This document shows, one piece after another, positions 8,465-64,000 of a stretch of DNA of 64,000 nucleotides. The notes below the pieces were generated by a model, which saw only the letters and a list, made by a program, of their open reading frames with translations, made no database searches and was not told the DNA's origin. Each line of letters starts with the position of its first letter. Within the stretch, counting starts at the first letter, position 1. The translations under genes and the position numbers were made by a program. This DNA comes from Collinsella aerofaciens (lineage in GTDB: Bacteria; Actinomycetota; Coriobacteriia; Coriobacteriales; Coriobacteriaceae): positions 1 to 64,000 of the forward strand of contig NZ_SPFO01000007.1 of NCBI RefSeq assembly GCF_005845035.1, in the 5' to 3' direction.

Positions 8465-8511
8465 GACAAGACGAGGCAAAGTATCGCCTCAACAACCACA
8501 TACAAGCCAGA

Positions 8512-8547
8512 ACAGGGGCGTCCCCAAAGAGGGCGCCCCTGTTTTTT
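8512..8547 (+). terminator. terminator of the transketolase operon
   Basis: CAGGGGCG and CGCCCCTG pair with an inner CCC/GGG step, followed by a run of six T. Confidence 0.88.
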
Positions 8548-8684
8548 CGGCAACAAACAAAACAGGCCCGCACCAAGCAAGGGCTTCCTCCGGGAAACGG
8601 GCCCATCCCAGCCAAGTGCAATTCAGCCCCCAAGCATAGCACTGCTGCACCCAAATAAAACGCAGCGACCCCTTAGTTACCGCA
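8548..8684. other. non-coding spacer
   Basis: No gene or clear signal is seen between the transketolase terminator and the large palindrome, apart from a weak CGGGCCC/GGGCCCG-like pairing near 8564-8604. Confidence 0.4.
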
Positions 8685-8807
8685 GGCCGGGTACAGGGTT
8701 ACTCTCCAAATCTTTCCGCAGGACGGAGGAGCCCCCGCCGCGCGAAGCGCGCAGCGGGGGCTCCGACATGTCCGAGGACGATTTGGAGAGTAACCCTGTA
8801 CCCGGCC
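8685..8807. repeat. large two-level palindrome (123 bp)
   Basis: Perfect 28-bp inverted arms lie at 8685-8712 and 8780-8807. Between them sits a second hairpin at 8728-8764 with 11-bp arms (GGAGCCCCCGC/GCGGGGGCTCC) and an inner CGCGC-GAA-GCGCG stem. The element is very GC-rich, contains no gene, and lies 104 bases before ftsE. It could be a non-autonomous mobile element, a protein-binding site, or a strong terminator. I see no second copy in this window. Confidence 0.85.
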
Positions 8808-8911: not shown

Positions 8912-10132
8912 GTGGGTAACCACTTCCGTACCTCCGGTGCGGGCGATGATGCCCCCAAGACGCAGGCAGGCGTCCAGGGCAGTCGTTTCGCCACTCCGGA
9001 TTCAGAGGGCCAGCCTGTTGCTCAGGCCCCCGCTCAGCCGGCAGATCAGGCACAGCCGGCATCCGATCCCTTTGCCTACAATCCAACCAGCGATGTCGCG
9101 CTTTCCGGCACGGCGGGTTTTGAGCCCGTTCAGGCCGTGACCGCTCGCGTTGAGCAGCCTCAGGCTGGTGCCGCCACGCCGCAGCCTACCATGGCCGGCA
9201 TTCCCGACCCCTTGGCCCCTGCGACGCCGGCTCCTCAGCCTGCGCAGTCCGGTCTCTTTGCCGCTATTCCCGACCCCACGCAGCCTGCTGCCCCGGTGGT
9301 CGAGAGCGATCAGGCAGCCGAGGTCGCAAGCCTCGATAACGCGCTCAACAACCCCGATTTTACGTCGGTGTTTGCGCCCATCGATCCGCAGGCCAGCCGC
9401 AAGAAGATGGCCAAGCAGGCCGGTGTCGAGCCCGTCATCCTTATGGAGCATGTCACCAAGATCTATCCGGCACAGCCCAACAAGCCTGCACTCGACGACA
9501 TCAACATCGAGATCTATCCGGGCGAGTTCGTCTTCCTGGTCGGTCACTCCGGCTCGGGTAAGACCACGCTGCTGTCGACGCTCAACCGTGACGTCAAGCC
9601 GACGAGCGGCCGCATCCTGGTTGCCGGTCAGGACCTCATGAAGATCAAGAACCGCAAGGTTCCGTTCCTGCGCCGCCAGATTGGCGCCGTGTTCCAGGAC
9701 TTTAAGCTTCTGCCGCAAAAGACCGCCTACGAAAACGTGGCGTTTGCCCTGCAGTGCATCGGCAAGCCCAAGGGCGTCATTCGCAGCCAGGTGCCCGAGG
9801 TGCTGCGTCTGGTCGGCCTGGCCGATCAGATGGACTCGCTGCCCGACCAGCTTTCCGGTGGCGAGCAGCAGCGCGTTGCCGTCGCCCGCGCTATGGTCAA
9901 CCGTCCGCCGCTGCTGATCTGCGACGAGCCGACGGGCAACCTCGACCCGGCGATCTCGCTGGGCATCATGAAGCTGCTCGAGCGTATTAACCGCACCGGC
10001 ACCACCGTGATCGTCGCCACGCACGACCGCGAGATGGTCGATAGCATGCACCGTCGCGTGATCGCCCTCGAGGGCGGCCACGTTATTCGCGACCAGGAGA
10101 GGGGAGGTTACGGCAACTATGGCACCAACTAA
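8912..10132 (+). CDS. ftsE: cell-division ABC ATPase FtsE with long N-terminal extension
   Basis: The last 230 or so residues are a complete FtsE ATPase: Walker A GHSGSGKTT, Q-loop FQDFKLLPQKTAYENV, signature LSGGEQQR, Walker B LLICDEPTGNLDP and the switch His in VATHDRE. FtsE with FtsX controls peptidoglycan hydrolases at division. Normal FtsE is about 225 residues; this one is 406. The first 170 are low-complexity, rich in Pro, Ala and Gln. The GTG at 8912 has a perfect AAGGAG six bases upstream, so the extension is translated. It overlaps ftsX by 14 bases. Confidence 0.95.
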   Translation: MGNHFRTSGAGDDAPKTQAGVQGSRFATPDSEGQPVAQAPAQPADQAQPASDPFAYNPTSDVALSGTAGFEPVQAVTARVEQPQAGAATPQPTMAGIPDPLAPATPAPQPAQSGLFAAIPDPTQPAAPVVESDQAAEVASLDNALNNPDFTSVFAPIDPQASRKKMAKQAGVEPVILMEHVTKIYPAQPNKPALDDINIEIYPGEFVFLVGHSGSGKTTLLSTLNRDVKPTSGRILVAGQDLMKIKNRKVPFLRRQIGAVFQDFKLLPQKTAYENVAFALQCIGKPKGVIRSQVPEVLRLVGLADQMDSLPDQLSGGEQQRVAVARAMVNRPPLLICDEPTGNLDPAISLGIMKLLERINRTGTTVIVATHDREMVDSMHRRVIALEGGHVIRDQERGGYGNYGTN

Positions 10133-32409: not shown

Positions 32410-32705
32410 GTCTCGATCTGTAACGTTTAGGGACAAAAAACCGGTCTTCCTGTTACAGATCGAGACGAATGCTTGGGCGCCGCTGGTTTGTCTAAATCTG
32501 TAACGTTTAGGGCCCTGGAGAACGTCTAACTGTTACAGATCGAGACGTTTGGCACCTGGCTGGGGGAATGTCTCAATCTGTAACATCTACAGGCCCAAAT
32601 TCGACCTACCTGTTACAGATTGAGACAAAGGTTGGCGGCTGCTGAAAGATCTTGTTCTGTAACAACTAGAGGCTCAAAGACTGTCTTCCTGTTACAGATC
32701 AAGAC
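32410..32705. repeat. array of four 57-bp palindromic elements (upstream array)
   Basis: Units lie at 32410-32466, 32490-32546, 32570-32626 and 32649-32705. Each has 16-bp inverted ends of the form GTCTYRATCTGTAACR and YGTTACAGATYRAGAC around a 25-base core. The start-to-start distance is 80, 80 and 79 bases, with 22-23 base spacers. Paired bases change together in places (CTCAATC with GATTGAG, CTCGATC with GATCGAG), so the stem itself is kept. The spacers are related to those of the downstream array. Confidence 0.92.
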
Positions 32706-33843: not shown

Positions 33844-34141
33844 GTCTCGATCTGTAACAACAGGGGGCCGTCTGGCCTCGTAACTGTTACGGATCGAGAC
33901 AGAAGGTTGGCGCCTGGCGAAAGATCTCAATCTGTAACATCTAGAGGCCGAAAACCTGTCTACTTGTTACAGATTTAGACGTTTGACGACAGGGCTGGAG
34001 AATATCTCGATCTGTAACATCTAACGGCCAAAAACCGGTCTACATGTTACAGATTGAGACAAAGGTTGGACGCACGACCGAAAGATCTCGATCTGTAACA
34101 CTTGGAAGGTTAAAGACGGTCTACCTGTTACAGATTGAGAC
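33844..34141. repeat. array of four 57-bp palindromic elements (downstream array)
   Basis: Units lie at 33844-33900, 33924-33980, 34004-34060 and 34085-34141, with an 80-81 base period. The spacers between units 2-3 and 3-4 resemble those between units 2-3 and 3-4 of the upstream array (TTTGRC...GGGCTGG; AAAGGTTGG...GAAAG). This indicates that the two arrays are copies of one block flanking the nuclease-like gene. Confidence 0.92.
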
Positions 34142-36708: not shown

Positions 36709-36775
36709 AGTTGCGGTGAAATACGGACTGTTTAAGGGCCTAGGGCGGCTCAACAGTCCGTATTTCACCGCAACT
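36709..36775. repeat. palindromic repeat, GTTGCGGTGAAATACGG family, copy 2
   Basis: The arms AGTTGCGGTGAAATACGGAC and GTCCGTATTTCACCGCAACT, extended by TGTT/AACA, give about 24 paired bases around an approximately 19-base centre. It is the better preserved partner of 22414-22479. It lies between copZ and csoR. Confidence 0.85.
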
Positions 36776-39658: not shown

Positions 39659-39796
39659 ATCTCAATCTGTAACGTCTGGACCGGTTTTTGAACCATAGCT
39701 GTTACAGATTTAGACAAACATTTCGGCCGAAAACTAACGTCTCGATCTGTAACATCTAGACCGGTTTTTTGGGTTCTAACTGTTACAGATCGAGAC
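39659..39796. repeat. two 57-bp palindromic elements, minus orientation
   Basis: Units lie at 39659-39715 (57 bp) and 39739-39796 (58 bp), 80 bases apart. Their cores (GGACCGGTTTTT, AGACCGGTTTTTT) are the reverse complement of the AAAACCGGTCT core in the plus-oriented arrays. The neighbouring genes (copA, kinase) are on the minus strand. A lone partial arm (ATTACAGAT) is seen at 39612. Confidence 0.9.
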
Positions 39797-62942: not shown

Positions 62943-64000
62943 ATGGCTAATCGTTTCGTTCTCAATACCATCTCTTATCATGGTTCCGGCGCCATCAAGG
63001 AGATTCCCGGCGAGCTCCAGCGTCGCGGCTACAAGAAGATCTTCGTCTGCTCCGACCCCGATCTGGTCAAGTTTGGCGTTACCGCTAAGGTGACCGACGA
63101 GCTCGACGCCGCCGGCATCGCTTGGAGCCTCTACTCCGAGATTAAGCCCAACCCCACCATCCAGAACGTCAAGGACGGCGTCGAGGCCTTCAAGGCCGCC
63201 GAGGCTGACGCTATCGTGACCATCGGTGGCGGTTCCTCCATGGACACCGCCAAGGCTATCGGCATCATCATCAACAACCCCGAGTTCGCCGATGTCCGCA
63301 GCCTCGAGGGCGTTGCTCCCACTAAGAACCACGCCGTGTTCACCATCGCCGTGCCGACGACCGCCGGTACCGCTGCCGAGGTGACCATCAACTACGTCAT
63401 CACCGACCCCGAGAAGGTCCGTAAGTTCGTGTGCGTCGACACCAACGACGCCCCCGAGGTCGCCGTCGTCGATCCTGACATGATGGCTTCCATGCCCGCC
63501 GGCCTGACCGCCTCCACCGGCATGGACGCTCTGACCCACGCCATCGAGGGCTATACCACCAAGGGCGCTTGGGAGCTCTCCGACATGTTCCACTTTGAGG
63601 CTATTAAGCTGATCAGCGAGAACCTGCGCGACTCTGTCGCCGAGGCCAAGTCCGGTCAGCCCGGCTCCGGCCGTGAGGGCATGGCCCTTGGCCAGTATGT
63701 CGCCGGCATGGGCTTCTCCAATGTCGGCCTGGGTATCGACCACGCCATGGCTCACACCCTGTCCGCTCACTACGACACCCCGCACGGCGTCGCCTGCGCC
63801 ATGCTGCTGCCGATTGCCATGGAGTTCAACAAGCCGGTTTGCGCCGAGCGTCTGGCCAAGGTTGCCGTCGCCATGGGTGTTGACACCACGGGCATGAGCA
63901 CCGACGAGGCTGCCGACGCCGCTATCGCCGCCGTCAAGCAGCTTTCCGCCGACGTGAATATCCCGCACGTCTGCGAGGCCATGAAGGCTGACGAGATCGA
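62943..64000 (+). CDS. fucO: iron-containing alcohol dehydrogenase, FucO-like (partial, runs off the window)
   Basis: The visible 352 residues cover nearly all of a group III (Fe-dependent) alcohol dehydrogenase. The NAD-binding GGGSSMDTAKAIG, the PTTAGTAAEVT segment, the metal ligands in STGMDALTHAIEGY and GLGIDHAMAHTLSAHYDTPHG are all present. The sequence TTKGAWELSDMFHFEAIKLI is like lactaldehyde reductase FucO, which makes 1,2-propanediol from L-lactaldehyde; ethanol or another alcohol is also possible. GGGAGG precedes the ATG by six bases. Confidence 0.9.
   Translation, partial: MANRFVLNTISYHGSGAIKEIPGELQRRGYKKIFVCSDPDLVKFGVTAKVTDELDAAGIAWSLYSEIKPNPTIQNVKDGVEAFKAAEADAIVTIGGGSSMDTAKAIGIIINNPEFADVRSLEGVAPTKNHAVFTIAVPTTAGTAAEVTINYVITDPEKVRKFVCVDTNDAPEVAVVDPDMMASMPAGLTASTGMDALTHAIEGYTTKGAWELSDMFHFEAIKLISENLRDSVAEAKSGQPGSGREGMALGQYVAGMGFSNVGLGIDHAMAHTLSAHYDTPHGVACAMLLPIAMEFNKPVCAERLAKVAVAMGVDTTGMSTDEAADAAIAAVKQLSADVNIPHVCEAMKADEI

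What the first reader, a model, noticed from the sequence alone, without database searches (positions are those of the whole stretch)
8685..8807. 123-bp two-level palindrome with perfect 28-bp arms before ftsE
Perfect 28-bp arms around a second GC-rich hairpin are far beyond chance and beyond the needs of a terminator. The transketolase terminator is already present 138 bases upstream. The structure might be a mobile element end-pair, a replication-pausing site or a large regulatory RNA.
Basis: seen in the sequence. Interest (0 to 1): 0.6.

Follow-up and report, generated by a model that had tools for sequence, protein, structure and literature searches.

The report
Nested REP-like palindromes in Collinsella
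The 123-bp palindrome is one of about 14 copies per genome of a hairpin family found in the gut bacterium Collinsella aerofaciens and its nearest relatives; the two arms change together as if one is copied from the other during DNA synthesis, and a transposon inserts into one exact spot of the hairpin.

Summary
The palindrome is real: perfect 28-bp arms, 67 bp between them, the longest perfect inverted repeat found in the window. It is not an assembly artefact. It belongs to a dispersed family with 14 copies in this genome and about 10-15 in each of some 24 relatives of the Collinsella aerofaciens complex. Other genomes of the class gave almost none. All copies share the same internal loops (left TCC-GCA-GG, right CC-GA-GGAC, an AT bulge) and a C-GNA-G tip. 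The arms differ between sites but stay complementary. Within a site both arms usually change together. G·T mismatches are not significantly commoner than A·C, which fits copying of one arm from the other in DNA (template switching) better than selection on an RNA helix. At 15 of 17 sites the element lies just behind a gene's stop codon, in one orientation. At 10 of 17 sites the far flank is a decayed inverted copy of the near flank. An IS110-family transposon sits in the GCA loop of copies: 15 of its 16 right ends abut an element. The window copy, upstream of ftsE, is one of two positional exceptions. I call it a new, large, nested variant of REP-like elements; spread and cellular role remain open.

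The parts
8685..8712 (+). left outer arm (level 1), sequence specific to this site
8713..8724 (+). conserved left loop block TT-TCC-GCA-GGAC; the GCA is the IS110 target point in other copies
8728..8764 (+). inner GC-rich hairpin; tip C-GAA-G at 8743-8747; exchangeable inner module
8768..8779 (+). conserved right loop block AT-GTCC-GA-GGA-C
8780..8807 (+). right outer arm (level 1)
8633..8664 (+). decayed inverted copy of the right flank (level 0)
   Evidence: site 0: score 27, above all 272 cross-site comparisons (max 24); scored on the ortholog L077
8830..8858 (+). right flank, apparent source of the level-0 copy; stretch upstream of ftsE that is nearly invariant among element-bearing relatives
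8511..8543 (+). separate intrinsic terminator of tkt (context)
8912..10132 (+). ftsE, ABC ATPase gene (context)

Best explanation
The element is a member of a clade-restricted family of large, nested, REP-like extragenic palindromes. Each copy has a constant set of asymmetric loops and a tip, an exchangeable inner hairpin, and outer arms specific to its site. SHOWN by sequence: copies at orthologous sites; conserved loops; arms that change on both sides in concert; no significant excess of G-T over A-C mismatches; a fixed orientation behind gene ends at 15 of 17 sites; inverted copies of the neighbouring sequence on the far side at 10 of 17 sites; use as target of an IS110-family transposon. 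INFERRED: the arms are kept complementary mainly at DNA level. During synthesis the nascent strand folds back at the hairpin, copies its own arm (template switch, quasi-palindrome correction), and now and then runs on into the flank, copying the gene end or upstream stretch into the opposite side. INFERRED and weaker: the conserved loops are kept because something binds them or because copies derive recently from one another, and some copies may act as mRNA 3'-end structures. How the core reaches new sites is unknown.
For: Family: 14 copies in own genome; 28 of 60 related genomes hit, all in one genus; 26 of 298 genomes of the class, 3 of 125 genera. Concerted arms: 33 of 50 pairs changed on both sides in 8 own copies, no one-sided wobble; by site, 121 two-sided Watson-Crick alternatives against 65 one-sided states (27 G-T, 19 A-C, 19 other; G-T vs A-C p = 0.30); 109 distinct copies: 2556 WC, 23 G-T, 19 A-C, 18 other. 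One copy (L085) shows the AT bulge copied into the other arm, the expected trace of template switching (PMC8794818, PMC7202029). Flank copying: 10 of 17 sites exceed every one of 272 cross-site scores, one over about 50 nt that lies in a gene end. Position: 14 sites plus the split-pfl site. IS110: NF033542 above cut-off; 15 of 16 right ends abut an element, as known for REPs (PMC1525189, PMC11208160).
Against: Template switching alone should erase the asymmetric loops, yet they are nearly invariant, so something else preserves them. The fixed orientation to genes suggests a role in transcripts, which template switching does not predict. Sequences within a site are related, so counts of states are not independent events. 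Some two-sided differences may be whole alleles exchanged by recombination (site 14 and the inner-module swaps). No clean empty site was found, so insertion was not seen directly. G-T is somewhat, though not significantly, commoner than A-C.
Confidence: 0.62

Rival explanations
1. A structured RNA element (mRNA 3' region or small RNA) under selection for base pairing; covariation is ordinary compensatory evolution and the loops bind a protein.
For: Strong covariation, invariant loops, fixed orientation behind stop codons at 15 of 17 sites, four-base inner stem covarying as GGAC/GTCC, GACC/GGTC, GCGC/GCGC, GCAC/GTGC, GATC/GATC.
Against: No significant excess of G-U over A-C in the arms; level-0 arms include coding sequence copied into the far side; no Rfam family at threshold; window copy is upstream of ftsE, not in a 3' region.
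Confidence: 0.2
2. A non-autonomous mobile element moved as a single-stranded hairpin by an unidentified enzyme (as REPs are thought to be by RAYT).
For: Dispersed copies with a common core; sites variably occupied between species; purine loops GCA/GA and GNA tips would suit folded single-stranded DNA.
Against: No clean empty site; Y1/RAYT genes occur in 39 of 45 genomes of the genus, also in ones without the element, and those inspected carry other hairpins; no gene inside; copies mostly at shared sites.
Confidence: 0.15
3. A transcription terminator: the inner hairpin is a former intrinsic terminator that acquired long arms.
For: At one site relatives carry either the element or an ordinary terminator with a like hairpin, and one genome is a hybrid (L563); several copies have a U-rich tail in gene sense such as CCTTTTTGC.
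Against: Many copies, the window's among them, have no U-tract; tkt already has its own terminator.
Confidence: 0.1
4. Assembly or sequencing artefact.
For: Palindromes break contigs, and runs of G or C appear at some copies (L093, L273, L279).
Against: Same element at the same site in many independent assemblies, including a single-contig one.
Confidence: 0.01

Closest known systems
REP elements / REPINs (with RAYT transposases)
   Same: Dispersed extragenic palindromes, often near stop codons, used as targets by IS110-family transposons
   Different: 123 bp and more instead of about 14-40 nt; nested; arms not conserved in sequence between copies; about 14 copies, not hundreds; no linked RAYT found
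Quasi-palindromes corrected by template switching (E. coli QP hotspots; PMC8794818, PMC7202029)
   Same: Arms made identical by fold-back copying; bulges copied across; extension into flank
   Different: Here a whole family with conserved asymmetric loops that are not erased, tracked over about 17 sites and some 24 genomes
IS621/IS110 target sites in REP (PMC11208160)
   Same: RNA-guided IS110 transposase inserted at a dinucleotide core within a palindrome
   Different: Core CA inside the GCA loop; target family is new; bridge RNA not examined
Intrinsic terminators of Collinsella
   Same: Similar GC hairpin at gene ends; one hybrid allele
   Different: Long outer arms; U-tract often absent

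Membership tests
REP element | extragenic | tested here: met
   15 of 17 sites lie 38-62 bp behind a stop codon, counted from the core; the window copy lies between tkt and ftsE
REP element | palindromic, repeated in the genome | tested here: met
   14 copies
REP element | short (about 14-40 nt) with a common sequence | tested here: not met
   123 bp; only loops and tip are common, arms differ (definition in PMC12306157)
REP element | associated RAYT gene | tested here: inconclusive
   PF01797 in 39 of 45 genomes irrespective of the element; flanks of those inspected carry other hairpins
IS110 target site | IS110-family element inserted at one fixed core | tested here: met
   15 of 16 right ends abut the element
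intrinsic terminator | GC hairpin followed by a U-tract | tested here: not met
   window copy, either strand; some other copies are U-rich
structured ncRNA | covariation that tolerates G-U | tested here: not met
   covariation present, no significant G-U preference
MITE | terminal repeats with target duplication and empty sites | tested here: not met
   no clean empty site at two sites examined
Rfam families | gathering score | tested here: not met

The most novel reading that the evidence does not exclude
The conserved asymmetric loops are recognised by a host or mobile enzyme that nicks or processes the hairpin on one side, so that self-primed synthesis repeatedly renews one arm from the other and copies neighbouring gene ends: a directed arm-renewing palindrome, a new kind of repetitive element.
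Probability: 0.13. Interest if true: 0.85.

Novelty: new variant of a known kind. Interest (0 to 1): 0.56.

Why it matters
It gives a natural data set (about 17 sites in some 24 genomes) for fold-back template switching in bacteria, with arms that covary like an RNA but apparently for a DNA reason. That is a warning for covariation-based discovery of non-coding RNAs. It also adds a REP-like target family for IS110 (bridge-RNA) transposons in a common gut genus.

Tried and rejected
Rfam: only sub-threshold hits that reflect a long hairpin. RAYT as mobiliser: no link. Phage records: no match; plasmid records: a 899,693-bp C. aerofaciens record whose length equals that of contig C6 of relative G007, and a weak Streptomyces hit. 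Intrinsic terminator for the window copy: no U-tract. Orientation set by replication: rejected, since copies a few kb apart point opposite ways. DNA folding energy of the two strands: nearly equal (-62.9 and -64.0 kcal/mol), no help. Empty sites: two sites examined; element-free alleles also differ downstream, so no clean pair. Papers: none found that describes this family.

Full report
OBSERVATION. The arms 8685-8712 and 8780-8807 are perfect 28-bp inverted repeats around 67 bp that hold a second hairpin, 8728-8764. The fold is far more stable than shuffles (z -13.3), and the repeat is the longest perfect one found in the window. The tkt terminator lies upstream as described.

A FAMILY. A search of the own genome finds related palindromes. 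A covariance model of eight copies finds 14 copies in the genome and about 10-15 in each of roughly 24 relatives, all in one genus. Record titles of matching contigs name Collinsella aerofaciens and close Collinsella. Outside the genus a class-wide search gave only two genomes with one or two weak matches. A pattern of the loops alone gives 10-18 matches in element-rich genomes against about 0-4 for the reversed control.

ANATOMY. From outside in: outer arm of about 27 bp; [AT][TC]-TCC-GCA on the left against GA-GGA-C on the right; a 4-bp stem that covaries between copies (GGAC/GTCC, GACC/GGTC, GCGC, GCAC/GTGC, GATC); a right-hand AT bulge; an inner stem; a tip of the form C-GNA-G in nearly all copies. 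The loop bases are nearly invariant in 127 copies. The inner module is exchangeable: at the tkt-ftsE site and at the P-type-ATPase site relatives keep the outer arms but carry a different inner hairpin.

ARMS CHANGE TOGETHER. In eight own copies 33 of 50 pairs changed on both sides and none showed a one-sided wobble. Over 109 distinct copies the 24 innermost arm pairs are 2556 Watson-Crick, 23 G-T, 19 A-C and 18 other. Counted per site there are 121 two-sided alternatives and 65 one-sided states, of which 27 are G-T and 19 A-C (p = 0.30). A helix kept by selection in RNA should tolerate G-U on one strand much more than A-C; this is not seen. Sequences within a site are related, so these are counts of states and not of independent events. 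L085 carries the AT bulge on both sides, as if copied across. Such changes are what fold-back template switching produces (PMC8794818; PMC7202029, abstract seen).

POSITION. Flank clustering gives 17 sites. At 14 of them a gene on the element's minus strand ends 38-62 bp from the core, and the split-pfl site makes 15. The two exceptions, the window site and a site before a tRNA-Leu gene, have the upstream stretch of a plus-strand gene on the right. At 10 of 17 sites the left flank is an imperfect inverted copy of the right flank, beyond all 272 cross-site comparisons. Since the right flank is coding or a conserved upstream stretch, the left is read as the copy (inference).

IS110. In the own genome one copy is split at TCCCG-CA / CA-GGAC by an IS110-family transposase gene. 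Of 16 right ends of this transposon in the genus, 15 abut an element. REPs are known IS110 targets (PMC1525189; PMC11208160).

TERMINATORS. At a site whose gene lies at the window's right end, relatives have either the element or an ordinary terminator with a similar hairpin; one genome is a hybrid. The element-free and element-bearing alleles differ downstream too, so this is not a clean empty site. U-rich tails occur in some copies only and not in the window copy.

VERDICT. A new, large, nested variant of REP-like elements, with arms most likely maintained by template switching. What keeps the loops, how the core spreads, and whether cells use it are open.

Noticed in passing
window 32410-32627, 33925-34141, 39739-39796: Another dispersed palindrome family, GTCTCGATCTGTAAC...GTTACAGATCGAGAC, several copies in clusters
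   Followed up: no
window 36709-36775: 24-bp perfect palindrome GTTGCGGTGAAATACGGACTGTT; near-copies sit in the tkt-ftsE spacer of relatives
   Followed up: no
L074:1421-2996 (G000:C47): IS110-family transposon inserted in the GCA loop of one copy; gene 1705-2994
   Followed up: partly
L027, L125: Extra CT (or C) after GCA in the left loop of one site, possibly an excision footprint of the IS110
   Followed up: no
L074 and L143: Formate acetyltransferase gene of about 671-683 aa followed by a separate small reading frame that looks like its glycyl-radical domain
   Followed up: no
window 63627-64000: Gene whose 3' end carries the palindrome in many relatives but an ordinary terminator in this genome
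   Followed up: partly
L093, L273, L279: Runs of G or C at the palindrome in three assemblies, likely sequencing failure at the hairpin
   Followed up: no
L081, L090: In two relatives the tkt-ftsE spacer ends in an unrelated insertion next to the site, in L081 with transposase-like sequence
   Followed up: no
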